This document shows, piece by piece, positions 1-13,273 of a stretch of 64,000 nt of DNA. Made by a program: the position numbers and the translations under genes. The notes below the pieces were generated by a model. It saw only the letters and a program-made list of their open reading frames with translations, was not told where the DNA came from and ran no database searches. The first letter of the stretch is position 1. Every line of letters starts with the position of its first letter. This DNA comes from Alphaproteobacteria bacterium (GTDB lineage: Bacteria > Pseudomonadota > Alphaproteobacteria > Sphingomonadales > Sphingomonadaceae), in the NCBI GenBank assembly GCA_005883305.1, contig VBAC01000001.1, forward strand, positions 1,426,001 to 1,490,000, given 5' to 3'.

Positions 1-53
1 CCGGGCTTCTACACCCACGGACACATTGCCTTAGATCGATTCGCGGTGCAAGT

Positions 54-80
54 TTCCCCGAAAGGGGAAGCAAGCGCTTG
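54..80. repeat. Hairpin plus palindrome upstream of the first phage-like gene
   Basis: TTCCCC and GGGGAA pair as a perfect 6-bp stem closed by a GAAA tetraloop (54-69). A 10-bp palindrome CAAGCGCTTG follows directly (71-80). No T-tract follows, so a terminator is not well supported. It lies 33 bp before the likely ATG at 114 and may be a leader structure or protein-binding site. The function is unknown. Confidence 0.4.
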
Positions 81-113
81 CCCCCATGTTCCCATTTCGT
101 TCACTGTCGCCCG

Positions 114-452
114 ATGGCCGAATCGCCCCTCCTGTCGGATCAGCTAAGGGACAAGGCGCTTCTCGCCCTCGAAGACGCTATCCAGGAATGTCGCTATCGG
201 ACTCCGCGCCCGTCATTCGCGGTGCGCTTCGCCCTCGCCTATCTCTGGGTTTATTCGGGCGGGGATCGGCGGCCTTTCGACGAGTTATGGCGGGCGATGC
301 GAAGCGAGAAGACTCCGTGGAGTTTCAGCGGCGCGGATATGGCGTTGCTCCGCATCTATCGCGTGCTTGGGCTTGAGCGTCCCGGTGCCGTCGGGAGTCT
401 GTGCTGGCGGAGCTGGGAGGCCCACGAGGGCCACGGCGGGGGCCAAGATTGA
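114..452 (+). CDS. Small phage-type hypothetical protein (112 aa)
   Basis: I do not recognise a named family. The ATG at 114 (MAESPLLSD) is preferred over an upstream TTG at 78, which would sit inside the palindrome. The protein is soluble and mostly helical: a central segment with the LAYLWVYSGGD motif (about residues 47-57) is followed by an Arg-rich helix and a Gly/His-rich tail. The reading frame is intact and starts a plus-strand run of short genes (114-1719) that includes an SRAP protein and converges on a capsid-bearing minus-strand operon. Its position and size fit an accessory gene of a phage or satellite. It has no signal peptide or membrane segment. Confidence 0.5.
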   Translation: MAESPLLSDQLRDKALLALEDAIQECRYRTPRPSFAVRFALAYLWVYSGGDRRPFDELWRAMRSEKTPWSFSGADMALLRIYRVLGLERPGAVGSLCWRSWEAHEGHGGGQD

Positions 453-534
453 CTCTGCGCTTTCCGCCGCGACATCGACAAGCTTGCGCCCGGCGCCCGG
501 CGGTATATCCGTTCGCGGGAAGGGAGACGTGGCG

Positions 535-714
535 ATGGCGGATCAACCCCCGGCCGAGTTTCACTGGAAGATGAGCGACCCAGACGCTGACGGCAACGTG
601 TGGCTTCAATGGACCGACGAAGGCGGCTCGTCCAACCTCCTGATGCTCGGGGCGCAAGCCGCCGTTGCCGAGTGCATGGCGGACTGGCTCGGGCGGATCG
701 ACTTCGGTAACTAG
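535..714 (+). CDS. Small hypothetical protein (59 aa)
   Basis: The ATG at 535 is preceded by AGGGAG at a good distance; a GTG two codons upstream is an alternative. The product is short and acidic with a Trp-rich central part (HWKMSDPDADGNVWLQW), and ends in a helix containing AECMADWLGRIDF. I know no family for it. The next gene begins 5 bp after its stop, so the two are probably co-transcribed in the same phage-like plus-strand run. Confidence 0.5.
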   Translation: MADQPPAEFHWKMSDPDADGNVWLQWTDEGGSSNLLMLGAQAAVAECMADWLGRIDFGN

Positions 715-719
715 CCGCG

Positions 720-923
720 GTGCCGATTGTCCCGACCCCCGCTGGCTTCCCGGTCGACGCGCTGAGCGCCGCCTATCGGCGATGCGTCGAGCTCGCGCAG
801 CCGTTCGTGCTCAGCATCGGCGGCGAGCTTCACGCGCTCGCCCTTCCGCCGGATCACGATATCATCCTGTTCAACCCGCCGCTCGAGTTGACCCCGGACG
901 TGCTTCGGATGGTGCTGGGCTGA
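720..923 (+). CDS. Small hypothetical protein (67 aa), coupled to the SRAP gene
   Basis: This starts at a GTG 5 bp after the previous stop. Its TGA overlaps the ATG of the SRAP gene (TGATG at 921-925), which suggests translational coupling. The sequence has no motif I recognise; it is a small mixed alpha/beta protein without membrane segments. The tight packing argues that it is a real gene of the plus-strand accessory operon and not a chance frame. Confidence 0.5.
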   Translation: MPIVPTPAGFPVDALSAAYRRCVELAQPFVLSIGGELHALALPPDHDIILFNPPLELTPDVLRMVLG

Positions 924-1522
924 TGTGCAACCGATTCCGCCAGACGAAGACGCGGGCGAACCTTTCGCAGATTTTCGGCGCCCGCCCCCTGGTCGATCCG
1001 CCCGAGCCGCGAACGGACATATTCCCAAAATACTCCGCATGGATTGTCCGCAAGGAAGCCGGCGAGCGCGTTCTCGATTACATGCCCTGGGGGATTCCGC
1101 TCGCCATGCGGGGGACCAAGGGTCAAATGCTGGCGCCTAAGCCGATAACGAACGTCCGCAACCTCGAAAGCAGCTTCTGGCGCTCCACGATCGCCAAGCC
1201 GGAATGGCGATGCCTGGTGCCGTTCACGTCCTTTGCCGAGCCGAAGCCGGGCAAGGATGAGGGTGGAAAGCCCGCGTGCTGGTGGTTCACGCTCCCGGCA
1301 AGCGAAGTCGCCGCCTTCGCCGGCATCTGGCGCCCCTCCGAATGGGGCAATGTGTTTTCGTTTCTGACGTGCGAGCCTAACCCGCTCGTTGCGTCGCTGC
1401 ATCCCAAGGCCATGCCGGTGATCCTCGATCCGGGCGATTATGACGCTTGGCTAGATGGCGAGACGGCGGAAGCGTGCGCCCTCGCCGCCCCCTTCCCCTC
1501 GCAGTTGATGGCGGTGACGTGA
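923..1522 (+). CDS. SRAP-domain protein (SOS response-associated, YedK/HMCES family)
   Basis: SRAP proteins crosslink through Cys2 to abasic sites in single-stranded DNA and shield them during replication. The 199-aa product starts MCNRF, so after Met removal the catalytic Cys is N-terminal. The other expected active-site residues are present: Asn77 in ITNVRN, Glu106 in SFAEPK and His160 in SLHPKAMPVIL. Length matches single-domain bacterial members (about 200-230 aa). The start is fixed by the MCN motif and by the TGATG overlap with the upstream gene. The downstream gene overlaps its stop (GTGA). SRAP genes are common in phages and mobile elements, which fits the capsid-bearing neighbourhood. 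Function is inferred from family knowledge. Confidence 0.9.
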   Translation: MCNRFRQTKTRANLSQIFGARPLVDPPEPRTDIFPKYSAWIVRKEAGERVLDYMPWGIPLAMRGTKGQMLAPKPITNVRNLESSFWRSTIAKPEWRCLVPFTSFAEPKPGKDEGGKPACWWFTLPASEVAAFAGIWRPSEWGNVFSFLTCEPNPLVASLHPKAMPVILDPGDYDAWLDGETAEACALAAPFPSQLMAVT

Positions 1523-1719
1523 CCCCCGAGCGCGAACGCTGGGCTTGCGCCCAAACTCTCATAAACCAGCACGGCCGGCGCGCGGTCGGCGAGGCCAATA
1601 TGCGGATACAAGAACTCGTCGAGGCCGATGATAGGGCGGGGGTCGAGTGCTGGCTGGATATTCTGGCGAAGATCGCCACGCTTCTCCGCGAGCGGGAAGA
1701 TGTCGACACTCTCCAGTGA
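1519..1719 (+). CDS. Small helical protein (66 aa), DUF6961-like
   Basis: It starts with GTG at 1519, overlapping the SRAP stop by 4 nt (GTGA), so it is translationally coupled. The pattern TPERERWACAQTLINQHG, then an EANMRIQELVEADDRAGV helix and an LDILAKIATLL helix, resembles small sphingomonad proteins I associate with DUF6961, though I cannot confirm this. No enzyme motif is visible. It is the last gene of the plus-strand run and ends 2 bp before the stop of the convergent minus-strand phage operon. Confidence 0.5.
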   Translation: MTPERERWACAQTLINQHGRRAVGEANMRIQELVEADDRAGVECWLDILAKIATLLREREDVDTLQ

Positions 1720-1721
1720 GA

Positions 1722-2456
1722 TTAGGCCGCCAGCCGCTCGTCAAAGGCATCCGGATTCGCTCGCACCTCGCGGAGAAGCGCATAGGCCTCGGCCAGCGTC
1801 GGCGCCAAGGCGCGGATGCGATGGGCGTGGCGCAAATTCGAAAGCCCGGAGTGAATGACGTGCGCCGGCTGGTAGCATTCGCATTCGAGGAAGCCGGCCT
1901 CGGCATTGATGCCCCGAAAGCGCTTCACGACTCCAGTGATCCTGCCATAAACCGCGCGCGGCCATGCCTTTTCGCGGTCGCGCACGTCGAAGGTGAACAG
2001 GTCGCCCTCCCTTATTTCTGTGTCCCGGCCGACATCGACAATCGCGAAGCTGTAGCCTGAAGTGAGAGGCGCCATGCACCCCCCGACCAGGCGAATGACG
2101 TGGAACCGGCGCACGTCCCACAGGTCGAAATGGCGCAGCCAATGGTCGCGCTTCGGCGGCATCGACTTTCCCGGCGCCGGAGGCAGGGGCGCGCCGAACG
2201 ACATTGGGCCGGATCGCACGACGGCGGTGCCTTGGGGATAAGTCGCGAGCGGCGCCGTCCCGTTGGCGGCGCGCGGCTTCGGAGCGGTGAGCGCGTGCAG
2301 CGCCATGCCCGCGCCGACCACCGTGGCGGCGACGATCGCTGAGGCGAAAAGCGACCCGACCCCTATGGCCGCCAGCGCGCCAGGCAACAGATAGGGCGCG
2401 AAGACGATCACCGCGACTGCCACCACAACCGCGACGACTTTGAGCACCTTCCCCAC
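1722..2456 (-). CDS. Phage protein with hydrophobic N-terminus and S24-like C-terminal domain
   Basis: The GTG at 2456 has a strong AGGAGG upstream and lies 1 bp after the preceding gene, so longer frames are rejected. The 244-aa product has hydrophobic segments at about residues 4-25 and 33-55, then a Pro/Ala linker. The C-terminal region (about 110-200) carries VGGCMAPLTSGYSFAIVDVG and EGDLFTFDVRD. This resembles the LexA/S24 signature G-x-S-M-x-P...GD, but with Cys where the nucleophilic Ser would be, so peptidase activity is doubtful. It is the last gene of the minus-strand phage operon. A role in virion assembly or regulation is possible; I cannot decide. Confidence 0.55.
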   Translation of the reverse strand: MGKVLKVVAVVVAVAVIVFAPYLLPGALAAIGVGSLFASAIVAATVVGAGMALHALTAPKPRAANGTAPLATYPQGTAVVRSGPMSFGAPLPPAPGKSMPPKRDHWLRHFDLWDVRRFHVIRLVGGCMAPLTSGYSFAIVDVGRDTEIREGDLFTFDVRDREKAWPRAVYGRITGVVKRFRGINAEAGFLECECYQPAHVIHSGLSNLRHAHRIRALAPTLAEAYALLREVRANPDAFDERLAA

Positions 2457-2457
2457 G

Positions 2458-2712
2458 CTAAGCCTCCTCTCTGACGACCATCGGCGCCCTAGAAATTCGC
2501 GTGCTAGGCGCGGCAGAACTGAGGCCAATCGCCTTGAACGCCATTCCCACCGCGAGCGTGAGACCCGCGGTGAGCACGGCACTCGCCACGATCGCAGTCA
2601 TCCCGACAAAGCCGAGGCCGGCCACTATCGAGAGGCCGCCGGTCGGCGCCGCAAGAACGGCTAGGGCTACGACGGCGGCGATCGTCGCGACCGTCTTGAG
2701 CGCCTTCCCCAT
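2458..2712 (-). CDS. Small membrane protein of the phage operon (84 aa)
   Basis: The sequence begins MGKALKTVATIAAVV and has two hydrophobic stretches (about residues 6-30 and 33-62) separated by Gly/Thr, followed by a basic polar tail. The N-terminus is similar to that of the next protein (GKVLKVVAVV), so the two genes may have arisen by duplication. It starts 15 bp after the terminase-like gene and ends 1 bp before the next start. A tiny two-TM protein near the end of a phage operon could be a holin-like or assembly protein, but no lysis enzyme is visible nearby. Confidence 0.5.
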   Translation of the reverse strand: MGKALKTVATIAAVVALAVLAAPTGGLSIVAGLGFVGMTAIVASAVLTAGLTLAVGMAFKAIGLSSAAPSTRISRAPMVVREEA

Positions 2713-2727
2713 GCTATCCGTTTCCCT

Positions 2728-3150
2728 TCATTCCCACGGCTTTTTGCCCGACGCGCCATCGACTGCGCGGCCCGCGCCGCGAGGCAGGATCTGCGATTGC
2801 TGGGTGAGCCGCATCGAGCGGGCGCAGGCCGTCAGCGCGCGCGTCTCGCGCTCAGCCATCGCCAAAAGCTTATCAAGACGGGCCAGCCCGCCATCCTCGT
2901 TAATCCACGCGGGATCGAATGCGGCGATCTGGCGGGCCATTGCATCGGCTCGAGCCTTGTGTCGGCAATAGGCGACCAGGATTGGATATTGAGCTCGCGA
3001 GAACCAGCCACTTGGCATGGTGCCGACGACATCGCGCCAGACAGTGCCCTCATTATCCCCGAGCTCGGCAGGCGGCGGCGGCCGGCGCGCCTCGATCAAG
3101 ACCGGGGCGACGGAAAGGGCTGAGGTGGATTTACGACCGCGCTGGCGCAT
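2728..3150 (-). CDS. Phage terminase small subunit-like protein (P27 family)
   Basis: Small terminases recognise phage DNA and hand it to the large-subunit motor. The 140-aa sequence begins MRQRGRKS like P27-type small subunits. It then has a Pro-rich lead (RRPPPPAEL), a segment VWRDVVGTMP, a helix PILVAYCRHKARADAMARQI and a late helix LLAMAERETRALTACARSMRLTQQSQ. These elements occur in the order seen in the P27 family. Its ATG overlaps the stop of the upstream 61-aa gene (TGATG). No large terminase subunit follows, which is unusual because the two are normally adjacent. The family call rests on pattern, not on an alignment. Confidence 0.65.
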   Translation of the reverse strand: MRQRGRKSTSALSVAPVLIEARRPPPPAELGDNEGTVWRDVVGTMPSGWFSRAQYPILVAYCRHKARADAMARQIAAFDPAWINEDGGLARLDKLLAMAERETRALTACARSMRLTQQSQILPRGAGRAVDGASGKKPWE

Positions 3151-3335
3151 CAGAATTCTTGCCGATTAGAGTTTGTGGCTGGGGGCGGCGGTGTCCGCTT
3201 CCCAGCAATGTGAAGAATCTCCCGCCCCCCTCGGCCCGTTGGCACGCTGGCGGGTAGATGGAACCCCGCCAGCGCACCTTCGGCGCTCTCCGCGTGAGGC
3301 TTGTCCGCCGCGGTGAGCATGGGATCAGGCGACAT
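3150..3335 (-). CDS. Small hypothetical protein between capsid and terminase genes (61 aa)
   Basis: This reads MSPDPMLTAADKPHAE and onward, with a Gly-rich centre and basic tail; I know no family for it. Possible starts are ATG at 3350, 3335 or 3320. I chose 3335, which begins 11 nt inside the end of the capsid gene and is consistent with coupling. Its TGA overlaps the ATG of the terminase-like gene. It may be a head-completion or connector-type protein by position only. Confidence 0.45.
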   Translation of the reverse strand: MSPDPMLTAADKPHAESAEGALAGFHLPASVPTGRGGREILHIAGKRTPPPPATNSNRQEF

Positions 3336-4425
3336 TGCCAAAGTCGCCATAGATCAGCGCCTCGGGGCGCTTGGCGGCGAAGCCGATCCGCTCTTCCCCG
3401 AGCACAGTCACGAGGTTCTTCGTGAAGTCGTCATTCACGAAGCCGACCTCGACGCGGGCGGACCAACGATCATAGAGGGTCTGGGCCTTGAACGCGCCGA
3501 CCAGGAACTTGTCGACGGTCATGGCCTGGGTGGTGACGACGGGCAGACCGAAGAGGCGCGGCTCCGCAACGACGCCCGGATCTCCGAGGATATACTTGCC
3601 CTCGCCATCCTTCAGCAGACGCATCCTCCACCAGTCGGAAGGGTGCAGCACCACACCGTCCGGCGGAATGTCGGTAAGCGATGCCTGCAAGATCGCGAGC
3701 GCGATGGTGTCGATCTCGTTTTCCGTGGGGTCGGGGCTGATCGGTGACGCGTAGGCCGTTGCCAGCGCCGCCATGCCTTCGAGGTTCTGCCCGGTGCCAT
3801 CGCCGAACAGAAGCTGCGCCTCTTCCACCAATGACAGCCCATAAAGCAGCTCATCGTCGATGATGGAGCGAAGCTGAGGCACGTCTTCCAGAACCTGCCG
3901 CGAGGCCTTCATCCAGTGGGCGATGACGCGCATCGGCACCGTTTCTAGGTCGAATTTGATATCCGATTCCGGCTTGGTCGCGCCTTCGGCAACCGGCGCC
4001 GCGCTATTCGTCCGGCCGGTCTGCTTGGGATATTCCACCGAGCCGCTGGTCGCGTTCACGACCGTCAGCAAGTTTCGGATCGTCAGGCGCCGGCGCGGCA
4101 GGGTGGTCGCCGTGTCGGCTTGCGGCACGATCAGATCGCCGACCGATCCCGCTGCATCAGTGGTGAGCGAGGTAAGGGACGCCTTCACCTCCAGTGAGGC
4201 CCGGTCGCCTCGCGTCATGCTGGCCAGGCCGGCGCCTTTTGCGTCGACGAACTGCTGTCCAAGGGACGCGCCGACGTGCGTGCCGTCCCCCCCGCCTCTA
4301 CGGGCGAGCTTCTGCTCGATTTCATCGATCCGCGCGGCGTTCTCGGCCGCCCTGACGCGATGGTCGTCGATGTGACTCTTGATTTCGGCCGCAATCTCTT
4401 CGACCGACTGTCCGTTGTAGCTCAT
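3325..4425 (-). CDS. Phage major capsid protein, HK97 family
   Basis: This 366-aa protein has the layout of HK97 gp5-type capsid subunits. A short helical delta-like segment (about residues 5-45, VEEIAAEIKSHIDDHRVRAAE) is followed by the shell fold. It includes DAAGSVGDLIVPQ, RNLLTVVNATSGSVEYP, the E-loop/spine region, VEEAQLLFGDGTGQNLEG, the P-domain segment VVLHPSDWWRMRLLKDGEGKYILG and GLPVVTTQAM. The C-terminal part is intact (RWSARVEVGFVNDDFTKNLVTVLGEERIGF). A GGGGA ribosome site precedes the ATG. No prohead protease or portal gene is present beside it, so the delta segment may be removed by an outside protease or not at all. This is the best-supported phage gene in the window. Confidence 0.92.
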   Translation of the reverse strand: MSYNGQSVEEIAAEIKSHIDDHRVRAAENAARIDEIEQKLARRGGGDGTHVGASLGQQFVDAKGAGLASMTRGDRASLEVKASLTSLTTDAAGSVGDLIVPQADTATTLPRRRLTIRNLLTVVNATSGSVEYPKQTGRTNSAAPVAEGATKPESDIKFDLETVPMRVIAHWMKASRQVLEDVPQLRSIIDDELLYGLSLVEEAQLLFGDGTGQNLEGMAALATAYASPISPDPTENEIDTIALAILQASLTDIPPDGVVLHPSDWWRMRLLKDGEGKYILGDPGVVAEPRLFGLPVVTTQAMTVDKFLVGAFKAQTLYDRWSARVEVGFVNDDFTKNLVTVLGEERIGFAAKRPEALIYGDFGNVA

Positions 4426-4429
4426 TGAT

Positions 4430-4618
4430 TTAATCCCCAGCCCTCGCCAGCAACGCGGCGAATTGCTTCAATTCAGCGACCTCTTCGGCCTCGGCCAGTT
4501 CGGACGGATCCTCGCCAGTCAGGGCTTTCCACGCCGCAGCGGCACCCGCTTTGGATCGACGGCTCGAAAAGCCCCATTCTCGGAGGGTCGCCTCAAGGTC
4601 GCGGATAGTCTTGGTCAT
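4430..4618 (-). CDS. Small helical protein upstream of the capsid gene (62 aa)
   Basis: The protein begins MTKTIRDLEATLREWGFSSR and continues with helices KAGAAAAWKALTGED and ELAEAEEVAELKQFAALLARA. The ATG overlaps the stop of the preceding ORF (ATGA) and its own stop lies 4 bp before the capsid ATG. The charged helical make-up resembles small head-associated proteins or capsid-assembly helpers, but there is no motif to prove it. Tight coupling to capsid makes a structural role reasonable. Confidence 0.5.
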   Translation of the reverse strand: MTKTIRDLEATLREWGFSSRRSKAGAAAAWKALTGEDPSELAEAEEVAELKQFAALLARAGD

Positions 4619-4761
4619 GCGCGCACCTCGACGGGCGGCCTGAGAAGGCCGTTCAATCCGTCGCCGGTCCGCACGTCTCGCGCGTAGTGGGCGGGTATCG
4701 CGTCGAGCATCTCACTCGTTGCGATGTCCTGGAAGGTAATGCAATACCGCTCCAATGTCAA
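4615..4761 (-). CDS. Tiny coupled ORF (48 aa), probable TTG start
   Basis: A longer frame starts at 4836, but it would overlap the previous gene by about 80 bp. A TTG at 4761 overlaps that gene's stop in a TTGA junction and gives MTLERYCITFQDIATSEM, so I prefer it. The stop overlaps the next ATG (ATGA). The product is a short basic protein with no known family. Overlaps at both ends support a real, co-translated ORF. Confidence 0.4.
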   Translation of the reverse strand: MTLERYCITFQDIATSEMLDAIPAHYARDVRTGDGLNGLLRPPVEVRA

Positions 4762-5012
4762 TGCCCGGCCCTCTTTATCTCGGCGAGTAGCTGGTCGCCG
4801 CCCGCCATCGTGAAGTCGGCCTGTCGCTGCAACCATTCGACGGTTGCCGAGACGCCGGCCGCCCTCAGAAGCCGCTCGATCAAAGCGACTTGCATCGCCG
4901 TCACGGCGACATTCTCCGAAACGCCGCCGACCATCAGCCCATCAATCCAGGCATGGGTCCGCTTGAGTAGGTCGAGCATCTCAGCGCGCTCGCCTTGCGT
5001 CGGTTCGATCAT
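4758..5012 (-). CDS. Small helical phage protein (84 aa)
   Basis: This begins MIEPTQGERAEMLDLLKRTH, includes AMQVALIERLLRAAGVSATVEWLQRQADF and ends QLLAEIKRAGH. It starts 1 bp after the stop of the upstream gene, whose last codons supply its AAGGAG ribosome site. Its N-terminus (MIEP) resembles that of the upstream protein, which hints at duplication. There are no membrane segments or catalytic motifs. Function is unknown. Confidence 0.5.
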   Translation of the reverse strand: MIEPTQGERAEMLDLLKRTHAWIDGLMVGGVSENVAVTAMQVALIERLLRAAGVSATVEWLQRQADFTMAGGDQLLAEIKRAGH

Positions 5013-5013
5013 T

Positions 5014-5217
5014 TCAATTCTCCTTCACGATTGCGATGACGGTGAGCCCTGCCAAGGCGCGAGCGAGGATGATCCGCTGGGATCGGCTGACACCGCAGTC
5101 GCGCAGGCGATGTTCCACCTCGCGGACGCCGAGGGGCCGACTGATCTCGTCCAGGAGGCGCAGCACCTCGGCGCGGACGGCGGGGGCCGCGCTCGCTAAG
5201 TGTTCCGGCTCGATCAT
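5014..5217 (-). CDS. Small helical phage protein (67 aa)
   Basis: The ATG at 5217 overlaps the stop of the 31-aa HNH-like relic (ATGA) and has AAGGGGC upstream. The product has a repeated-helix look (APAVRAEVLRLLDEISRPLGVREVEHRLRDCG, then SRSQRIILARALAGLTVIAIV). The second half resembles a small helix-turn-helix or winged fold, but no family is assigned. It is part of the coupled minus-strand operon between the replication-like gene and the capsid gene. Confidence 0.45.
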   Translation of the reverse strand: MIEPEHLASAAPAVRAEVLRLLDEISRPLGVREVEHRLRDCGVSRSQRIILARALAGLTVIAIVKEN

Positions 5218-5309
5218 GAGCCGCCCCTTGCGGGCGCGCGAAGCTGCGCCAGGCGACGGGCTCGCCACCGTGAAGTGCTATACCACTTGCCGTGGGGCTG
5301 CTTGCTCAT
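5214..5309 (-). pseudogene. 31-aa ORF resembling the N-terminus of a phage HNH endonuclease (truncated)
   Basis: This short frame is open from an ATG at 5309, which overlaps the stop of the replication-like gene, to a TGA overlapping the next ATG. It reads MSKQPHGKWYSTSRWRARRL and then AQLRAPARGGS. The W-Y-x-S-x-R-W-x-x-R-R-x-x-Q-L-R pattern matches the start of phage HNH nucleases that sit beside terminases, where a zinc-binding Cys/His and HNH core would follow. Here the core is missing and an unrelated gene follows. It may be a vestige fixed by translational coupling, or a small protein in its own right. Confidence 0.4.
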
Positions 5310-5965
5310 ACCGCGGCCTTTCGGCTCGCCGATGGGCCGCCCGCTATTTTGCCCCCATTTTCCTCTGAGAATTTCGGCTCGGTTCCGGTGCCTGGGTATG
5401 GCTTACTTATAAGCACTACCCCGTCGGTAGCAGGGCCGGCCGGCGTTCTTGGCAGTTTTCCGTCAGTGTCTGCTACCGCATTGGTAGCAGCGGCGACCCT
5501 GCTTGCTACGAACGCGGTAGCAGCACGGGGCTCCCCTGCTACCGCATCGGTAGCGTCGATTTGCGCTTCCGGAGTCCAGTCAAGGTATTCGTTTGTCGCC
5601 TTGATCGGGCGGCCAATGCTGTCCGTGGTGTTGACGAATGTTAGGCGATAGGTCCGCGCCAGCCGCTGCTTCCACTTCGCCTCGAGCCCCACGTCGACCA
5701 GCCCGCACTTGATAAGCTCGGCAATGGCTGGAGCGAAGCAGGCCTCGTTCTTGCGGTTGAGAGCGTGCGCCAGTTCCTTGAAGCTCAGTCCGATCTGCCC
5801 GTTATTGTAGCCGTTCAGCCGCGCCACGATCTCGACCAGGACGCAACGGGCCATTGGGTTGAGGTGGCGATAGGCTTCGCTCTTGATGACACTGATTGGG
5901 ATGCCGGCGAAGCCAGCTCCGCGCGTGTCGGCGCGATGCTCGGCCTTCACCTTACCGCGCGCCAC
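5306..5965 (-). CDS. Replication-initiator-like winged-helix phage protein (219 aa)
   Basis: The N-terminal half (about residues 20-110) looks like a winged helix of phage replication or plasmid Rep-type proteins: GIPISVIKSEAYRHLNPMARCVLVEIVARLNG, then LSFKELAHALNRKNEACFAPAIAELIKCGLVDV and a basic strand KQRLARTYRLTF. The second half (about 135-190) is a low-complexity linker with an 11-residue repeat (ATDAVAGEPRA, ATAFVASRVAA, ATNAVADTDGK). That linker is encoded by four palindromic DNA repeats at 5413-5556, as in initiators whose gene contains the origin (for example lambda O). The ATG overlaps the end of the upstream 71-aa gene by 14 nt. Function is inferred from fold and repeats; a regulator is the alternative. 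Confidence 0.6.
   Translation of the reverse strand: MARGKVKAEHRADTRGAGFAGIPISVIKSEAYRHLNPMARCVLVEIVARLNGYNNGQIGLSFKELAHALNRKNEACFAPAIAELIKCGLVDVGLEAKWKQRLARTYRLTFVNTTDSIGRPIKATNEYLDWTPEAQIDATDAVAGEPRAATAFVASRVAAATNAVADTDGKLPRTPAGPATDGVVLISKPYPGTGTEPKFSEENGGKIAGGPSASRKAAV
5413..5556. repeat. Four iteron-like palindromes inside the replication-like gene
   Basis: Four copies of CTACC-N5-GGTAG, usually extended to TGCTACC-N5-GGTAGCA, have centres at about 5423, 5480, 5513 and 5546. The copy at 5470-5490 has perfect 8-bp arms (CTGCTACC, GGTAGCAG). The third has one arm mismatch. The last three are exactly 33 bp apart (about three helical turns) and the first is offset by 57 bp. They use GCT and GTA codons that are uncommon in this GC-rich genome, which suggests DNA-level selection. 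Their arrangement fits an origin or operator bound by the encoded protein. A more A/T-rich stretch lies beside them at about 5340-5412. Confidence 0.65.
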
Positions 5966-6167
5966 GGCAAACCTCGATCGAGTCAGGATCGCAGCCCAGA
6001 GCCTTTAGGGCCGCCGCGGCGGCTTCTACCGATGGATAGGGCGCCAATCGCGCGCCGATACGGCTGGCGCGCACGGCCGGCTCAACGAAGTTAACCAGCG
6101 AATCGATTGCCGCGTAACAGGCTCCTAGCTCTGGATGCGTCCCTTTGAAGAGGTCTGTCTCGCTCAT
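5952..6167 (-). CDS. Small hypothetical protein (71 aa)
   Basis: The protein begins MSETDLFKGTHPELGACYAA and contains a helix SVEAAAAALKALGCDPDSIEV. Its ATG overlaps the stop of the first gene of the operon (ATGA at 6164-6167), and its end overlaps the replication-like gene by 14 nt. I know no family. It is soluble and possibly regulatory. Confidence 0.5.
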   Translation of the reverse strand: MSETDLFKGTHPELGACYAAIDSLVNFVEPAVRASRIGARLAPYPSVEAAAAALKALGCDPDSIEVCRGAR

Positions 6168-6463
6168 GCGGCTACACTCTTCGCGGTCGCGGAGGCGGGC
6201 GTTACCGCCGTCAGCTCATGCTGATCGCGCCACCAATGCCGGGCAATGATTGGCGGGATTTTTTTGCTCGAAAGGTTAGACAGCCCGCCGGCGTCCCCAA
6301 AAGAAATTTCCAGTCGTTTTGCGTAGGTTTGCCAGCTTAAACCATTGAGACTAGCCGCTTCAGGCAGTCCCGTAGGGGTCACCATTACCGAGCGACCGGG
6401 AGCCACATGCGCGGCCTCGGGACTTAACCCGAGTGACTCGGCCCCCACAAAAAACTGTAACAT
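6164..6463 (-). CDS. First gene of the phage minus-strand operon, hypothetical (99 aa)
   Basis: Starting at ATG 6463 the protein reads MLQFFVGAESLGLSPEAAHV, then a segment LNGLSWQTYAKRLEISFGDAG and a basic stretch LSSKKIPPIIARHWWRDQH. The centre could form a small DNA-binding helix pair, but I cannot name a family. The reading frame stays open upstream across the neighbouring CYTH-CHAD gene, so the true 5-prime end could once have lain further out and been cut at the element border. Only about 54 bp separate it from the divergent chromosomal gene, leaving little room for two promoters. Confidence 0.5.
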   Translation of the reverse strand: MLQFFVGAESLGLSPEAAHVAPGRSVMVTPTGLPEAASLNGLSWQTYAKRLEISFGDAGGLSNLSSKKIPPIIARHWWRDQHELTAVTPASATAKSVAA

Positions 6464-6517
6464 TTCACGATCACAATGGCCTCTTGGGGGGCGGCCTGCG
6501 CTCGGCGGGAAAAAGCT

Positions 6518-7978
6518 GTGTCCGACGAAGTCGAGTTGAAGTTCGACGTCGATCCGGCGTGCGCGGAGCGGCTGCGCGCGGCCCCGGCGCTCGCGGCCGC
6601 CGAGCCGCGGGTCGAGCAAAGCGAATCCATCTATTTCGACACGCCGGACCAGGCGCTTCGCCGCGCCGGGGTTTCGCTGCGCGTGCGCCGCTCGGGGGGG
6701 AGGATCGTCCAGACGGTCAAGCGCAAGAAGGGCGACGCCGCCGGCCTGTTCGTCCGCGAGGAATGGGAGGCCGAGCTTAAGCGCTTCGGCCTCGATCCGG
6801 GGGCCTTCGCCGATCCCGAGGCGCGACGTCTGCTCGCCCGCTTCGACCGCGCGGCGCTCGCCCCGGTGATCCGAACGTCCTTCACCCGCACCGCCTGGCA
6901 GGTCGCCCATGACGGCAGCCGGATCGAGGTCGTGCTCGACGAAGGGGCGGTCAAGGCCGGCCGGCGCAGCACCCCGCTGAGCGAGATCGAGCTCGAGCTG
7001 ATCGACGGCAAGCGCGGAGCGCTCTTCGCCCTCGCGAGCGAGATCGGCGTGGCCGCGCCCCTTTTCCTCGGAACGATGAGCAAGAGCGAGCGCGGCTATG
7101 CTTTGCTGGAGCAGAGCCTGGGGCGCCCGGCCAAGGCCGAACCGGTCGTGCTCGGCGGCGGCGACAGCGCGGCAGACGCCTTCCGCAAGACCGCCTTGGC
7201 CTGCCTTCGCCATTACCGGCTCAACGAGATGGCCCTGCTCGCGCGCCGCGATCCCGACGCGCTTCACCAGGCGCGGGTGGCGCTTCGGCGGCTGCGCTCG
7301 GCGCTGACCCTGTTCCGCCCGGCCGCGAAGGGCGCCGGCTATGAGCGAATCCGCGCGGAGCTGCGCTGGTATGCAAGCCAATTCGGGGACGCGCGCAACC
7401 TCGACGTCCTGCTCGCCGGGGCATTGTTGCCGAACGATGCCGCCCTGCGCGGGTCGGTCAAGGCCGAGCGCGAGCGCGCCTACGATGAGGTCCTGGCGAC
7501 GCTCCGATCGGAGCGCGCCCGGGCGCTGATGCTCGACATCGCTTTGTGGATCGAGCTTGGAGGCTGGGCGCGCAGGCGCCGGGCGCTCGGCAAGGTCCGC
7601 GATCTGGCGGCGCAACGGCTCGATCGGCAGTGGCGCAAGGTCTGCCGGCGGGGTCCGGAGCTCTCCTCGCTCGATCCCGACGCCTCCCATTTGCTGAGGA
7701 TCGACGTCAAGAAGCTTCGCTACGCGGCCGAATTCCTCGCCTCGCTCTATGCCGAAAAGGCGCTTGCGGGCCGCAGCCGCCGCTTCGTCGGCGCGCTTAG
7801 GGAACTGCAGGAAAGGCTCGGCGCGGCCAACGACGCCCACGTCGCGCGCGCGCTCCTCGCCCGCCTCGCGCCGGGCCGGGAAGCCGAGATCGTCATTCCC
7901 GACGTGGCGCGAGGCCCGGCCGAAGCCGCTTTTGGCAAGGCCGCGGCGTCCGCCGGCTATTGGCTGCCCGAAGGCTGA
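6518..7978 (+). CDS. CYTH and CHAD domain-containing protein
   Basis: CYTH domains bind triphosphates or polyphosphate, and CHAD domains are Arg/Lys/His-rich helical modules that bind polyphosphate. The 486-aa product begins at GTG 6518 (MSDEVELKFDVDP), where the ExExK-type motif of CYTH reads EVELKF. The CYTH part covers about residues 1-200 (SESIYFDTPD, VSLRVRRSGG, IELELIDGK). The CHAD part covers about 215-480 with typical HQARVALRRLRSALTLF, QFGDARNLDVLLA, IDVKKLRYAAEFL and LQERLGAANDAHVARAL. It stands directly beside the phage-like module but has host-type codon use. An upstream ATG at 6476 is less likely. Confidence 0.88.
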   Translation: MSDEVELKFDVDPACAERLRAAPALAAAEPRVEQSESIYFDTPDQALRRAGVSLRVRRSGGRIVQTVKRKKGDAAGLFVREEWEAELKRFGLDPGAFADPEARRLLARFDRAALAPVIRTSFTRTAWQVAHDGSRIEVVLDEGAVKAGRRSTPLSEIELELIDGKRGALFALASEIGVAAPLFLGTMSKSERGYALLEQSLGRPAKAEPVVLGGGDSAADAFRKTALACLRHYRLNEMALLARRDPDALHQARVALRRLRSALTLFRPAAKGAGYERIRAELRWYASQFGDARNLDVLLAGALLPNDAALRGSVKAERERAYDEVLATLRSERARALMLDIALWIELGGWARRRRALGKVRDLAAQRLDRQWRKVCRRGPELSSLDPDASHLLRIDVKKLRYAAEFLASLYAEKALAGRSRRFVGALRELQERLGAANDAHVARALLARLAPGREAEIVIPDVARGPAEAAFGKAAASAGYWLPEG

Positions 7979-7989
7979 TACGGGCGCGG

Positions 7990-9465
7990 TCAGGACGAGC
8001 TCCGCGGCGGTCTCCCTGCCCGCGCGGCCTGGAACCGGGCGAGCAGGGCGTCGGCCATCGTCTCCGCCTCCGCCGCGTCGAGATCGTGCATCTCGGGCGA
8101 GACCAACGCGCCCGATCCGGCGGTGTCGAGGAGCAGGTTCGACAGGCGAAGCGCGCGCTGGACAGGGCCGCGCATGACCCGGATCGTCTGGGTCTTCTCG
8201 TAAGGCACGATCCACATCCGGCGTTTGAGATAGCCGTCCGCGACGAACAGGGCGCGCTCGCCCAGCGCATGGCCATGCTTTCGCCAACGCAGAATCCCGA
8301 TCAGCGCCGCGGCGAGCAGCGCCAAAGCGGCGAGGCCGAGCCAAGGCTCGACGAGAAAGGCCGCGGCCGCCGCCAGCGCCGCCATCGCCAAAGCGGGCGC
8401 GGACTGGCGGACCAGAGCGCGCCGCGGGACGCCGTGAAGCGCTTGTCGGGGCGGCGGCTCGGGAAAGCCGGCGGCGGCGAGCACCGGCAGGATCTCCGCC
8501 ATCCGCGCGAACGGAGCGGCGACCTGCACGCCGCCTTCCTTGCGGTCGGCGCCGAGTGTCTGGAACGAGAGCCGGTGCCAGCCGAACAGCCGCGCGAGCG
8601 GCCCGCTCTCGATCAGCGCCACCTGCGCCCGGCGGATCGGGATCACCACCTCGGAGAGGGTGAAGAGCCCGCGCCGCCGTCTCAGGCCCGCCGCGGTCCT
8701 CGTCAGGGTGAAGCCGAAATCCCGGGTCACCGCCCGTCCGACGCCGGCCACCAGGCCGAGCGCGAGCATCATGGCGGCGAGGCCGAGCGCCAGCCGGGCG
8801 GTGATCAGGTGCGCCGCCCGGTCCGCGCGCTCGGGCGTGAACCAGTCGCTCCAGTTGAACAGGCCGAACTGGTCGAGCTGCTGAAGCGCGCCGGCGATGA
8901 CCGCGAAGAAGACCAGCGAGAAGCCGAACAGTCCCGACAGGACGAGCCGCGGCAGGTCCATCGCGAACAGCACGGGCTCTTCGGGCAACGCCGCTTCGGC
9001 GTGCGCCCCAGCCGGCCCCGCCCCGTGGCGGACGCGGTCGCGAAGCGCCTCGGCGTCGGCCAGGGCGATCATGTCGAGCGTCCCTTCGTCCTTGGCCGCG
9101 CCGCCGGTCTCGATCCTCACGGCAGCGGTGCCGAACAAGCGGGCGAGCAGCTTCCGTTCGATGGCGATGTCCTGCACCCGGTCGAAGGGGATGATCCGGC
9201 GCTGGCGGCGAAGCAGCCCTTTCTCGATCACGATCTCCCCGGGCCCGATCGTGTAGCGGAAGCGCCACCAATAGAGCGCTGCGAGCACGGCCGCGAGGAG
9301 CAGGAAACCCAAAGCGAAGGTCAGCAACGGCGCCAGGTCCCGGTCGCGCACCGCCACCAGCAGGCCCGCGGCGCCGGCAAGCATCTGGGGCGCGGACTTG
9401 AGCCAGCGGGCGACCAAGGTCGCCGGATGAAGCCGCCGCGGGATCGGGTCCGGCGCGTCGCTCAA
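7990..9465 (-). CDS. YdbT-like membrane protein with three bacterial PH domains
   Basis: This 491-aa protein has membrane helices near residues 22-65, about 175-260 and 370-410. Three PH_2-type repeats are marked by YWWRFRYTIGPGEIVIEKG...IPFDRVQDIAIERKLLARLFG, DFGFTLTRTAAGLRRRRG...IPIRRAQVALIESGPLARLFG and LFVADGYLKRRMWIVPYEKTQTIRVMRGPVQRAL. It matches the second protein of the YdbS/YdbT pair. Start is a TTG that overlaps the stop of the upstream partner (TTGA), giving MSDAPDPIPRR. The pair probably acts in the inner membrane; the physiological role is poorly known in the family. Its stop lies 12 bp from the convergent CYTH-CHAD gene. Confidence 0.85.
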   Translation of the reverse strand: MSDAPDPIPRRLHPATLVARWLKSAPQMLAGAAGLLVAVRDRDLAPLLTFALGFLLLAAVLAALYWWRFRYTIGPGEIVIEKGLLRRQRRIIPFDRVQDIAIERKLLARLFGTAAVRIETGGAAKDEGTLDMIALADAEALRDRVRHGAGPAGAHAEAALPEEPVLFAMDLPRLVLSGLFGFSLVFFAVIAGALQQLDQFGLFNWSDWFTPERADRAAHLITARLALGLAAMMLALGLVAGVGRAVTRDFGFTLTRTAAGLRRRRGLFTLSEVVIPIRRAQVALIESGPLARLFGWHRLSFQTLGADRKEGGVQVAAPFARMAEILPVLAAAGFPEPPPRQALHGVPRRALVRQSAPALAMAALAAAAAFLVEPWLGLAALALLAAALIGILRWRKHGHALGERALFVADGYLKRRMWIVPYEKTQTIRVMRGPVQRALRLSNLLLDTAGSGALVSPEMHDLDAAEAETMADALLARFQAARAGRPPRSSS

Positions 9466-9920
9466 GCCAAGTCCTCGCGGATCTTGCCGCGGATGCGGTC
9501 GCGCATCGCCTCGGCATCGGCCATGGCGAGCCCCGGCAGGGGCACCGCGGCGCCATGGGTGCCGGCGGTGTGCAGGATCAGGGTGGCGAGCCCGAACGGC
9601 CGCTGGATCGGGCCCTGCGCGACGTCGATATGCTGGACCCGCGGGAATGGGACGATCGTCCGCACCCGGATCAACGTGCCGCGCCGGATCTCCAGCTCGT
9701 CCGCGCCCTCGCGATAGCCCCAGCGGCGATAGCGGCGCCGAGGCACGATCACCGTCGCGCCGAGGCCGAGGGCAAGCGTAGCGCCGGGCAAGGCAGAAGC
9801 CGGAATCCCCCACTCGCGCGCCGGCCGATCGAGGATCCAGGCTGCGAGCGCCAGCACCGCGGCGACGAGGCCCACACGAATCGTCAGCACCCAGATTTGC
9901 CGGGAATCGAGCCGCGTCAT
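9462..9920 (-). CDS. YdbS-like membrane protein with one bacterial PH domain
   Basis: The 152-aa product has two membrane segments (about residues 7-25 and 35-55) and one PH_2-type domain: RRWGYREGADELEIRRGTLIRVRTIVPFPRVQHIDVAQGPIQRPFGLATLILHTAG. It ends AEAMRDRIRGKIREDLA. Its stop overlaps the start of the three-domain partner, so the two form a coupled pair. ATG 9920 has GGGGAGG 8 nt upstream; a GTG at 9965, also with a Shine-Dalgarno-like GGAGG, would add 15 residues. Confidence 0.82.
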   Translation of the reverse strand: MTRLDSRQIWVLTIRVGLVAAVLALAAWILDRPAREWGIPASALPGATLALGLGATVIVPRRRYRRWGYREGADELEIRRGTLIRVRTIVPFPRVQHIDVAQGPIQRPFGLATLILHTAGTHGAAVPLPGLAMADAEAMRDRIRGKIREDLA

Positions 9921-10052
9921 CTCTGGGACCTCCCCGCCCTCTTCGTCCTGCCGATGCTCCGCCACGCCCGCGCCTCCCCATTTCACCTTATGGTGACATT
10001 CCCGCGCGCAAGCGAATAGAGGCATAATCGGGCTTGTTGGGAGGATTCTCGG

Positions 10053-10901
10053 ATGGCGTCACGATCTGTGCCGCGGGCATTGCTGGCGTTGGCGGGCGTG
10101 GTCGCGGCGGGGCTGCTCGTCTATTTCTTCCTCTTTCCCCATGGCCCCCGCGTGCCGGCCGTCAGGCCGGGGCCCGAATTCGATCCCGGCCAGTTCGTAC
10201 AGGGCCGCCCGCGCCTCGACGTCCCCTTCATCGCCAGCGACATGCAGGTGGTCGACGCGATGCTGGCGATGGCCGCCGTCAGGCCGAACGATTACGTCCT
10301 CGATCTCGGTTCGGGCGACGGGCGAATCCTGATCACCGCGGCGCGAAGCAACGGCGCGCGGGGCCTCGGCGTCGACATCGATCCGGCCCGAATCCGCGAA
10401 TCGAACGCCAATGCGCGCGACGCCGGAGTCAGCAACCGGGTCGCCTTCCGCCGCGAGGACCTGTTCCAGACCCCGCTCGCCGAAGCGGACGTCGTGACGC
10501 TCTATCTGCTGCCCCAGATCAACCTGCGCCTCAGGCCCCGAATCCTCGCCGAGATGCGCCCCGGGACGCGCGTGGTCTCCCACGATTACGACATGGGCGA
10601 CTGGCGCTGGGAGGAGCGCCGCCGGGTCGGCAACGCGATGATCTACATGTGGATCGTCCCCGCCCGCGTCGCCGGGATCTGGACCCTGAGCGAGAACGGC
10701 CGGGACCAAGCGATGGTCCTCACCCAGGAATATCAGACGTTCGGCGGAACGCTCGGCGGAACCCGGGTCGAGCAGGGCCGGCTCACCGGCGACCAGATCC
10801 GCTTCGTCGTCCGGGGCGGCGGCGGAAGACGGGTCTACGAAGGCCGGGTGAACGGCAACGCGATGGCCGGCGAAGGCTGGCGGGCGGCGCGCTCGGGCTG
10901 A
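10053..10901 (+). CDS. Membrane-anchored or secreted class I SAM methyltransferase
   Basis: The 282-aa protein begins with a signal-anchor (ALLALAGVVAAGLLVYFFLF, about residues 9-28). It then has a Rossmann methyltransferase core with motif I YVLDLGSGDGRI, an acidic GLGVDIDPARI strand and LYLLPQINLRLRPRILAEMRPGTRVVSH. The C-terminal part (about 215-282) is a beta-rich extension. GGGAGG lies 9 nt before the ATG. Similar proteins modify unknown substrates near the membrane. The substrate is not evident here, and the neighbours give no pathway clue. Confidence 0.75.
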   Translation: MASRSVPRALLALAGVVAAGLLVYFFLFPHGPRVPAVRPGPEFDPGQFVQGRPRLDVPFIASDMQVVDAMLAMAAVRPNDYVLDLGSGDGRILITAARSNGARGLGVDIDPARIRESNANARDAGVSNRVAFRREDLFQTPLAEADVVTLYLLPQINLRLRPRILAEMRPGTRVVSHDYDMGDWRWEERRRVGNAMIYMWIVPARVAGIWTLSENGRDQAMVLTQEYQTFGGTLGGTRVEQGRLTGDQIRFVVRGGGGRRVYEGRVNGNAMAGEGWRAARSG

Positions 10902-10930
10902 GGAAGATCGCCTCCCGCAGCAATTGAGTC

Positions 10931-11012
10931 GTCATTGCGAGCGTAGCGAAGCAATCCAGTGCAAGATCCGAGGCCCGCTGGATTGCTTCGTCGCTACGCT
11001 CCTCGCAATGAC
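10931..11012. repeat. Inverted repeat of the CATTGCGAGC..GAAGCAATCC type
   Basis: GTCATTGCGAGCGTAGCGAA..GCAATCCAG pairs with CTGGATTGCTTCG..CTACGC..CTCGCAATGAC around a short centre, giving a long imperfect hairpin. It lies between the methyltransferase gene and the end of the DUF938 gene, which converge, so it may act as a bidirectional transcription end. It belongs to a different sequence family from the GTCATCCCGGCGAA hairpins found elsewhere in the window. Confidence 0.75.
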
Positions 11013-11017
11013 GATGC

Positions 11018-13233: not shown

Positions 13234-13273
13234 CGATAAAGCTCCGAGTTCAGGATCCGCACCGCCGCAAAAG

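What the first reader, a model, noticed from the sequence alone, without database searches (positions are those of the whole stretch)
1..6463. Compact capsid-bearing phage-derived module without portal, large terminase, tail, lysis or integrase genes
The minus-strand operon encodes a replication-initiator-like protein, a major capsid protein and a P27-like small terminase, with about ten tiny overlapping genes, but none of the usual partners. Genes are intact and tightly coupled, which is unlike a decaying prophage. This could be a satellite that borrows a helper phage, or a new minimal element.
Basis: partly seen in the sequence, partly recalled or inferred. Interest (0 to 1): 0.75.

Follow-up and report, generated by a model that had tools for sequence, protein, structure and literature searches.

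The report
Phage satellite with own capsid shell
A 10-kilobase piece of parasitic DNA sits in a tRNA gene of an alphaproteobacterium and carries its own virus-shell protein and packaging-recognition protein but no packaging motor or entry gate, so it probably borrows the rest from a helper virus; relatives built in a similar way occur in other bacteria of this class.

Summary
The block at window 1-6463 is the right part of a 10.24 kb integrated element (genome C1:1422129-1432386). It lies between the 3' end of a tRNA-Glu gene and an exact 21-bp copy at window 6366-6386. Inside are an initiator with iterons in its own gene, an HK97-type major capsid protein (MCP), a TerS and small genes. Portal and TerL are absent; of the prohead protease only the C-terminal domain is left.

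Eighteen elements with an MCP of this clade and no portal or TerL are bracketed by tRNA repeats 9.3-11.8 kb apart, in Hyphomicrobiales and Sphingomonadales. Satellite and phage MCPs split cleanly in a 57-row tree (99/93); a 131-row tree needs three label changes. The MCPs look selected and keep the HK97 cross-link residues (17 of 17). Three relatives lie in the late region of prophages with a different MCP; one splits the prophage TerL.

Best reading: PICI-like satellites that bring their own, probably small, shell and borrow portal, TerL and tail. Capsid genes in PICIs are known (SaPIbov5 Ccm, PmCI172): a new variant of a known kind. Nothing was tested at the bench.

The parts
1..6386 (.). 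the part of the element that lies in the window. Left of the window, in coordinates of L003 (genome C1:1406001-1426000): tRNA-Glu(CTC) 16072-16147 (+), attL core 16129-16149, tyrosine integrase 16159-17277 (-), 60-aa ORF 17274-17456 (-), 182-aa ORF that looks HTH-like by eye 17456-18004 (-), cargo ORFs 18051-18794 (-) and 19097-19777 (-)
   Evidence: integrase PF00589 E 9.4e-17 and phrog_1 E 2.6e-31; the other ORFs have no family match over a cut-off
114..452 (+). cargo ORF, 112 aa
535..714 (+). cargo ORF, 59 aa
720..923 (+). cargo ORF, 67 aa
923..1522 (+). SRAP (SOS-response-associated peptidase) cargo gene
   Evidence: PF02586 E 2.5e-25
1519..1719 (+). DUF6961-like small protein
   Evidence: PF22284 17.9 bits, below its cut-off
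1722..2456 (-). 244-aa late gene: N-terminal hydrophobic segment plus a domain with a GxCMxP motif; conserved in satellite L125
   Evidence: tblastn, alignment; structure model unusable, pLDDT 40
2458..2712 (-). 84-aa hydrophobic late protein
   Evidence: ORF
2728..3150 (-). terminase small subunit (PAJU2-type)
   Evidence: phrog_12559 E 7.9e-37; 49.6% to PAJU2 gp1
3150..3350 (-). 66-aa ORF between MCP and TerS
   Evidence: ORF
3325..4425 (-). HK97-fold major capsid protein with a delta-like N-terminal domain, 366 aa
   Evidence: PF05065 E 3.5e-52; HK97 gp5 PDB chains, e.g. 1ohg E 3.5e-67; cross-link residues kept
4430..4618 (-). free-standing C-terminal domain of the prohead protease; catalytic part missing
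   Evidence: protease profile E 1.7e-4 on the six-frame set, alignment
4615..4836 (-). small ORF (46-73 aa by start choice)
4758..5012 (-). 84-aa protein conserved between initiator and capsid genes in six satellites (this one, L106, L107, L125, L127, L131); predicted three-helix protein
   Evidence: pLDDT 91; no PDB match with E<=0.001
5014..5217 (-). 67-aa ORF, conserved in L125
   Evidence: 40% identity
5306..5965 (-). replication initiator, probably lambda-O-like
   Evidence: phrog_270 E 0.0042; family in 36 of 397 family genomes, the own one included; the gene at the same place in L124 is phrog_391 O-like E 1.9e-10
5416..5554 (.). putative origin: iterons (five copies of CTGCTACC counted on either strand) inside the initiator gene
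   Evidence: the repeat finder; 1 of 1000 codon-block shuffles as high
5952..6167 (-). 71-aa ORF, conserved in L113 upstream of its initiator
   Evidence: 48% identity
6164..6385 (-). 73-aa ORF whose ATG lies in attR
6366..6386 (.). attR core, 21 bp, exact copy of the tRNA-Glu 3' end; right border of the element

Best explanation
The element is an integrated phage satellite of PICI-like type, 10.24 kb, resident in tRNA-Glu. When a helper siphophage of the HK97/D3/Rivra type enters or is induced, the integrase excises the element (inferred) and its O-like initiator starts replication at iterons inside its own gene (inferred). The element then makes its own HK97-type MCP. That MCP assembles on the helper's portal, is matured by the helper's protease (this element kept only the protease's C-terminal domain; 12 of 17 bracketed relatives kept a protease), and forms a small, cross-linked shell sized for about 10 kb. 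Its TerS steers the helper's TerL to satellite DNA, and helper tails finish the particle. Shown here: borders, gene content, absence of portal and TerL, conservation, purifying selection, the MCP clade, relatives in prophage late regions. Inferred: excision, replication, shell size, use of helper portal, TerL, protease and tail, transfer.
For: 21-bp att repeat at the tRNA-Glu 3' end and window 6366-6386 with an adjacent integrase. Profiles from 16 TerL and 16 portal sequences find neither in the 18 att-bracketed elements at E<=1; controls gave portal in 6 of 7 loci and TerL in 5 of 7, with most control loci in or close to the training rows. Integrase in 16 of 18 brackets, protease in 12 of 18 plus the fragment here. 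Relatives: 9 of 10 loci from genome contigs have this MCP without TerL or portal by tblastn. In an order and class search with the MCP alignment 25 loci were classified: 8 lack a portal, 7 of these are tRNA-bracketed at 9.3-11.3 kb and the eighth (L185) ends at the MCP; 0 of 17 portal-bearing loci show a bracket (Fisher 2.9e-6). Three of the seven (L161-L163) match L133, L132 and L131 in contig length and att spacing, so four are new. Eighteen brackets in all, 9.3-11.8 kb, median 10.3 kb. MCP tree of 57: satellites and phages are two sides of one branch, 99/93, 98% of bootstrap trees. MCP dN/dS 0.09-0.34 in five of six pairs; K169, N356 and E363 kept in 17 of 17. In L206 a satellite with protease, MCP and integrase lies inside a prophage TerL, whose two pieces cover model positions 4-273 and 269-500 of 510; L127 and L214 lie just upstream of prophage TerL or portal genes. 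In-gene iterons.
Against: No experiment and no virion sequence: excision, replication and transfer are not shown. No empty site was found in the genus. The host genome holds no HK97/D3-type helper prophage, only a GTA-like cluster and a P2-like gene set; Pfam portal is also absent from the whole genomes of G290, G321 and G077 and of the hosts of L130-L133, so helpers would have to come from outside. This element has lost the protease catalytic domain, which could be read as decay. TerS of this family was found in only 2 of 18 brackets and the initiator family in 4 of 18, so the 18 are tied mainly by the MCP, length and tRNA site. No integrase was recognised in the brackets of L126 and L176. 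With 79 viral-contig MCPs added the split is no longer perfect: 3 label changes against a shuffled mean of 16.2; three of the four portal-labelled rows inside the clade are satellites next to a prophage portal, the fourth (L222) carries portal and TerL of its own. Several dS values exceed 1, so dN/dS is rough. The small-shell claim rests on genome length alone, and a passage in PMC12946183 gives only about 4 kb for oblate T=3 GTA particles.
Confidence: 0.72

Rival explanations
1. Ccm-like spoiler: still a satellite, but its MCP enters only part of the shell (as pentamers) together with the helper's capsid protein, shrinking the helper capsid, as for Ccm of SaPIbov5.
For: Closest worked-out precedent: Ccm is a capsid-protein homologue that occupies pentamers, cannot form shells alone and is delta-cleaved although no protease was identified in SaPIbov5 (passages of PMC8569155). 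This element, like five other brackets, lacks a complete protease. Satellite and neighbouring prophage MCPs are homologous, 49-52% identical over the parts aligned, so co-assembly is plausible.
Against: 12 of 18 brackets carry their own prohead protease, which a minor subunit would not need. Satellite MCPs have no missing domain segment and keep the cross-link residues. CP and Ccm share 24% identity and Ccm lacks the long N-arm.
Confidence: 0.27
2. Remnant of a degraded prophage that kept MCP, TerS and integrase by chance.
For: No portal or TerL, no tail or lysis gene recognised; the protease is reduced to its C-terminal domain; the nearest homologues of MCP and TerS in phage records are ordinary phage proteins.
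Against: Similar make-up and length in 18 att-bracketed elements in two orders; MCPs form their own clade; MCP dN/dS 0.09-0.34 in five pairs; the order MCP then TerS differs from phages, in which this TerS adjoins TerL in PAJU2 and in 9 of 9 viral loci; initiator with in-gene iterons.
Confidence: 0.06
3. Capsid decoy kept for immunity: the MCP is made during infection to poison helper assembly and protect the cell, without the element being transferred.
For: Satellite capsid genes can interfere with phages: helper titres were 10^6 to 10^7 higher with a ccm mutant of SaPIbov5. A relative carries defence-like cargo, a Fic-type gene in L124.
Against: An intact integrase, att sites, initiator with iterons and TerS are not needed for a decoy; the spread over different tRNA genes and genera implies movement. 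No PADLOC match in five proteins of this element.
Confidence: 0.07
4. Rider on the host's gene transfer agent: particles are completed with the resident GTA portal and tail.
For: The only cluster in this genome with HK97-type portal, protease and MCP is the GTA-like one.
Against: The element MCP is of the D3/phiL7/Rivra type and matches the RcGTA capsid chains in the PDB only at 25 bits; relatives are found next to ordinary prophages.
Confidence: 0.02

Closest known systems
SaPIbov5-type PICI with Ccm (PMC8569155: passages and outline seen)
   Same: small satellite; capsid-protein homologue with a delta domain; no protease identified in SaPIbov5, as for this element; the helper's portal is used
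   Different: different bacterial phylum; MCP much closer to phage relatives (49-52% against 24%); most relatives here encode a protease
Gram-negative PICIs, including PmCI172, EcCICFT073 and helper-embedded HE-PICIs (PMC6092414, PMC6893505, PMC10111431: passages; section 20 of the last read)
   Same: integration, replication and late zones; [quoted passage not shown] small capsids seen for PmCI172; L205/L206, L127 and L214 have a helper-embedded layout, and the paper names a Terminase_1 site
   Different: this element shows no AlpA, Bro gene or primase and its integrase points outward; Alphaproteobacteria; MCPs of one clade with a protease in most and no portal or TerL
Capsid-forming PICI (cfPICI; definition seen in passages of PMC10690885)
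   Same: own capsid gene; elements with the same initiator family carry TerL, MCP, protease and portal (L105; L222) or TerL, MCP, protease and an adaptor (L070)
   Different: cfPICIs encode the full head and packaging set and borrow only tails; this element has no portal, TerL or intact protease
Tycheposons and VEIMEs (named in a passage of PMC11389934; the two primary papers are not held)
   Same: tRNA-integrated satellite-like elements; I recall that some tycheposons carry MCP and TerS (recalled, not checked)
   Different: could not be compared here
Siphophages phiL7, Rivra, D3 and PAJU2
   Same: homologous MCP (phiL7, Rivra, D3: 43-50%) and TerS (PAJU2: 49.6%)
   Different: phages of 44-56 kb with their own TerL and portal (for phiL7, PAJU2, Rivra)

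Membership tests
PICI-like phage satellite (general) | integrase and att sites bracketing a roughly 10-15 kb element | tested here: met
PICI-like phage satellite (general) | own replication module | tested here: met
   initiator family plus in-gene iterons; the initiator match by itself is weak and activity was not tested
PICI-like phage satellite (general) | lacks genes needed for autonomous particles | tested here: met
   no TerL or portal; no tail or lysis family at E<=0.01 among the 20 proteins scanned
PICI-like phage satellite (general) | induced and packaged by a helper phage | not testable with these tools
   needs induction and virion sequencing; relatives adjoin prophage late genes
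Gram-negative PICI sensu PMC10111431 | AlpA-type excisionase and inward-pointing integrase | tested here: not met
   no AlpA match in this element and the integrase reads outward, into the tRNA; an AlpA/HTH-type gene is present in relatives L106 and L206
Gram-negative PICI sensu PMC10111431 | Bro zone and primase-type replication | tested here: not met
   none in this element; Bro-N/ANT in L206, primase matches in L130 and L133
cfPICI | encodes portal, TerL, protease and MCP | tested here: not met
   only MCP
SaPIbov5/Ccm type | capsid-protein homologue without own portal | tested here: met
SaPIbov5/Ccm type | homologue occupies pentamers and redirects shell size | not testable with these tools
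   needs cryo-EM
Defective prophage | broken genes and relaxed selection | tested here: not met
   intact ORFs, MCP dN/dS 0.09-0.34 in five of six pairs; one gene, the protease, is truncated

The most novel reading that the evidence does not exclude
A monophyletic lineage of alphaproteobacterial satellites that brings only the parts fixing particle dimensions and DNA choice: the shell (MCP with or without protease), TerS in some and a tape-measure protein in some (L106, L132). The portal, motor and remaining tail are borrowed, so that the whole shell of a helper with a homologous MCP is swapped for a roughly 10 kb (T=3-like) one built on the helper's portal. This would be a stable middle state between ordinary PICIs and cfPICIs.
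Probability: 0.45. Interest if true: 0.75.

Novelty: new variant of a known kind. Interest (0 to 1): 0.6.

Why it matters
Satellites that carry a capsid protein but not a portal are a natural test of how capsid size is set in HK97-type phages: the same helper portal would be used by two homologous shells of different volume. The MCP clade occurs in Hyphomicrobiales and Sphingomonadales; none of the 15 papers listed (of 67) holds both 'phage satellite' and 'sphingomonad'. Natural satellite-prophage pairs (L127, L206, L214) are at hand for experiments. It also suggests that some small 'incomplete prophages' with a lone capsid gene are working satellites.

Tried and rejected
Portal, TerL or tail genes left of position 1: not found, the element ends at the tRNA 3.87 kb to the left. 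Fragment of a common prophage: rejected by the TerS survey (1 of 298 family genomes, the own one) and by the MCP clade. GTA relation: the MCP matches RcGTA chains only weakly. Empty attachment site in relatives: the flanking protein window 6518-7978 has matches in 15 of 26 genus genomes, but no tRNA was seen in the 13 loci scanned, one of them the own, so no empty site is shown. Homology of the 84-aa protein (window 4758-5012) with the 91-95-aa protein at the same place in four Hyphomicrobiales satellites: not supported (hhalign probability 2%). PDB fold search with the model of the 84-aa protein: nothing with E<=0.001. The window 1722-2456 protein: no match in phage records and an unusable model (pLDDT 40). 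Defence genes among five proteins of this element: none in PADLOC. Exact att repeats for the satellite in L127: none convincing. L111 (G077) has the initiator, a 10.5 kb tRNA bracket and a far more distant capsid protein; with L070 and L105 it was left out of the second MCP tree because of long branches and it is not among the 18. Five rows (L180-L184) were left out of the 131-row tree and L181-L183 out of the residue count.

A mistake found on checking: I had taken a 353-aa gene of L070 for a portal and put it among 17 portal training rows; PHROGs does not recognise it. Without that row the profile gives the same answers on the brackets, on the 25 order and class loci and on the 79 viral contigs, and L070 drops out of the controls. 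My notebook entries that call L070 a textbook cfPICI are superseded: it has TerL, MCP, protease and an adaptor, but no portal was recognised.

Sampling notes: the genome-contig loci came from patterns made on satellite MCPs, which favours satellites; the order and class search was made to check this, but its query was also a satellite MCP alignment. The viral-contig scan with A2 kept the best 80 of 256 relatives. Control loci L105, L102 and L127 were training rows and L020 is close to training row L019; L013 and L018 were not in training. Two papers that looked close in the listings (PMC4490671, PMC12946183) were checked by passages and do not describe this family there.


Full report
What is there. 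The window is C1:1426001-1490000 of a 3.03 Mb genome. Twenty kb to the left were fetched. A tRNA-Glu(CTC) gene lies at L003:16072-16147, and 12 bp beyond it lies the 3' end of a 372-aa tyrosine integrase gene that reads towards it (PF00589 E 9.4e-17). The last bases of the tRNA with the two that follow, 21 bp in all, recur exactly at window 6366-6386. Outside the repeat the two sites do not resemble each other (5 of 30 and 7 of 30 identical bases). In 84 kb only four 20-bp direct repeats 5-30 kb apart exist, this one included.

Gene content. From right to left on the minus strand: two small ORFs, an initiator (219 aa), four small ORFs, the MCP, a 66-aa ORF, TerS, an 84-aa hydrophobic protein and a 244-aa protein. 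The MCP is an HK97-type capsid protein (PF05065 E 3.5e-52; HK97 gp5 chains in the PDB). TerS matches phrog_12559 at E 7.9e-37 and PAJU2 gp1 at 49.6%. Between 114 and 1719 lies a plus-strand cargo block with a SRAP gene (PF02586 E 2.5e-25). Further left are cargo ORFs and the integrase. The 62-aa ORF just upstream of the MCP (4430-4618) is the C-terminal domain of a prohead protease without its catalytic part.

The initiator. It matches replication initiators weakly (phrog_270 E 0.0042), but its family occurs in 36 of 397 genomes of the bacterial family, the own one included. The gene at the same place in satellite L124 is a clearer O-like initiator (phrog_391 E 1.9e-10). Inside the initiator gene there are five copies of CTGCTACC counted on either strand, partly as palindromes. 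One of 1000 codon-block shuffles reached that number. Of 22 homologous genes tested, six (L106, L103, L105, L110, L111, L119) have an 8-mer of their own at least four times with 0 of 200 shuffles as high; for the other 16 between 1 and 200 of 200 shuffles are as high. An origin inside the initiator gene, as in phage lambda O (recalled), is the simplest reading.

No portal, no TerL. Profiles from 16 TerL and 16 portal sequences find nothing at E<=1 in six frames of 18 att-bracketed elements (a first run on 13 regions). Controls gave portal in 6 of 7 loci and TerL in 5 of 7 (L018 is truncated, L102 shows none). The protease profile hits 13 of 18 brackets, this element by its C-terminal fragment only; the integrase profile hits 16 of 18. 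Pfam portal (PF04860) is absent from the whole genomes of G290, G321 and G077 and from four of the ten genomes reached through L124-L133; the other six have portals, which for L127 and, 17 kb away by my reckoning, probably L126 belong to neighbouring prophages.

Relatives. Twenty loci around the initiator family were fetched. Two (L106, L107) share initiator, the 84-aa protein and an MCP 58-60% identical. Some members of the initiator family carry more of the head set: L105 has TerL, MCP, protease and portal; L070, a 10.9 kb viral contig, has TerL, MCP, protease and an adaptor, with no portal recognised. A scan of genome contigs with an MCP alignment gave ten loci in Agrobacterium, Sphingomonas, Rhizobium, Falsochrobactrum, Methylobacterium, Qipengyuania, Allopontixanthobacter and Tsuneonella (Falsochrobactrum and Methylobacterium are Hyphomicrobiales and Qipengyuania Sphingomonadales, the orders of the others are recalled). 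Nine of ten show no TerL or portal by tblastn in the stretch held; the tenth, L127, is discussed below. In the eight of these ten where a tRNA gene lies in the stretch, a repeat of the tRNA end brackets the MCP at 9.5-11.8 kb.

Check with another sample. The alignment of 13 satellite MCPs was searched in 385 class and 396 order genomes and 25 loci were classified. Eight have no portal; seven of these are bracketed by tRNA repeats at 9.3-11.3 kb and the eighth ends at the MCP. Of 17 loci with a portal (14 with TerL as well) none shows such a bracket; a 20 kb stretch could not hold both ends of a 40 kb prophage, so that part is expected. Adding three from viral contigs (L189, L190, L213) there are 18 bracketed elements of this MCP clade: 9.3-11.8 kb, median 10.3 kb. 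They are tied by the MCP, the length and the tRNA site; the initiator family is in 4 of 18 and this TerS family in 2 of 18. Elsewhere replication genes differ, for example an O-like gene in L124 and primase matches in L130 and L133.

Tree. In a tree of 57 MCPs, 17 satellite and 40 phage sequences are the two sides of one branch (99/93, 98% of bootstrap trees). An earlier tree of 39 with three distant rows had satellites in two groups. With 79 viral-contig MCPs added and five rows left out (131 rows, quick method) the labels need 3 changes against a shuffled mean of 16.2. Four rows labelled 'portal' fall inside the satellite clade. Three of them (L205, L206, L214) are satellites whose stretch also holds a neighbouring prophage's portal and second MCP; the fourth (L222) carries portal, TerL, protease, MCP and an initiator of this family, like a cfPICI. 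Of eleven unlabelled viral contigs, nine show neither portal nor TerL and lie in the satellite clade; L224 has a TerL and the same MCP as L222, and L265 starts at the MCP and lies among phages.

Satellites in prophage late regions. In L206 the prophage TerL is split: one piece covers model positions 4-273, the other 269-500 of 510. Between them lies about 10.4 kb with a HTH_17/AlpA-like gene, a Bro-N/ANT gene, protease, MCP, a 1178-aa ORF and an integrase; the prophage continues with portal, protease and a second MCP 52.5% identical to the satellite's over the part held. L205 is the same arrangement cut short. In L127 a satellite lies just before a TerL whose match to PAJU2 TerL starts at residue 23, followed by portal, protease and a second MCP, 50% identical to the satellite's. 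L214 has a satellite just before portal, protease and MCP. Exact att repeats were not found for L127, and no repeat over 11 bp for L206. This resembles the helper-embedded layout described for Enterobacterales PICIs, where a Terminase_1 site is named (PMC10111431, passages and section 20).

Signs of function. Nei-Gojobori dN/dS of the MCP is 0.09-0.34 in five pairs (dS saturated in a sixth) and 0.09-0.41 for three protease pairs; dS is near or above 1 in all, so the values are rough. The HK97 cross-link residues K169, N356 and E363 are kept in 17 of 17 satellite MCPs and 36 of 37 phage MCPs. L106 and L132 also carry tape-measure-like proteins. In L130 a TerS of this family also follows the MCP.

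Mechanism. From this I infer a satellite that replaces the shell and steers DNA choice but borrows portal, motor and tail. Length fits a T=3-like shell: (3/7)^1.5 of a 40-44 kb genome is 11.2-12.3 kb, T=4 would give 17-19 kb. This is arithmetic, not evidence of structure, and oblate T=3 GTA particles hold only about 4 kb (passage of PMC12946183). The main open point is whether the satellite MCP forms the whole shell or, like Ccm of SaPIbov5, only the pentamers (PMC8569155). The protease in 12 of 18 brackets and the undiminished MCP favour the whole shell; the missing protease here and the homology to prophage MCPs leave the Ccm way open.

Known and new. [quoted passage not shown] PmCI172 makes small capsids and encodes an MCP homologue (PMC6092414; PMC6893505). 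So the principle is known. I found no paper on an alphaproteobacterial family of this make-up in searches of an open-licence library, judged by listings and the passages cited; a survey of satellites and the primary papers on tycheposons and VEIMEs are not held, and the primary cfPICI paper was not looked up, so a description there cannot be excluded. The rank is a new variant of a known kind.

Noticed in passing
L188 (G000 C1:468001-488000), about 3671-17584: GTA-like cluster with portal, protease and MCP (profile hits) in which a 688-aa ORF (looks like a beta-helix protein by eye) lies between protease and MCP.
   Followed up: partly
L187 (G000 C1:855001-875000), about 623-10322: P2-like prophage gene set by eye (capsid, scaffold, terminase, portal) in the same genome; a possible but unrelated helper.
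   Followed up: partly
L222 1-16536: Viral contig with portal, TerL, protease and MCP in that unusual order plus an initiator of this family: a cfPICI-like element with an MCP in the satellite clade.
   Followed up: partly
L106 4916-7561 and L132 12674-14689: Satellites that carry a tape-measure-like protein besides the MCP, hinting that tail length may be replaced too.
   Followed up: partly
L102 (G061) 11101-18116: Locus with the same initiator family that has protease, portal, a 1201-aa ORF and a neck protein; no PF05065 capsid gene was found in that genome.
   Followed up: partly
L070 8859-9920: 353-aa gene between an adaptor-like gene and the element end, where a portal would be expected; not recognised by PHROGs.
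   Followed up: partly
L126 15290-16597: 435-aa ORF at the element end where an integrase would be expected; no PHROGs match. The only recognised integrase lies outside the bracket.
   Followed up: partly
L124 11159-11833: Fic-type gene (SoFic / PDC-S04 models) as cargo of a satellite.
   Followed up: no
L107 14481-14708 and 16755-16982; L106 3740-3967: Small ORF with paired cysteines present twice in L107 and once in L106 near the element end.
   Followed up: no
window 923-1522: SRAP (HMCES/YedK-type) gene as cargo; SRAP-like matches also lie at L120 6712-7278 and just outside the bracket of L130 at 4358-4606.
   Followed up: no
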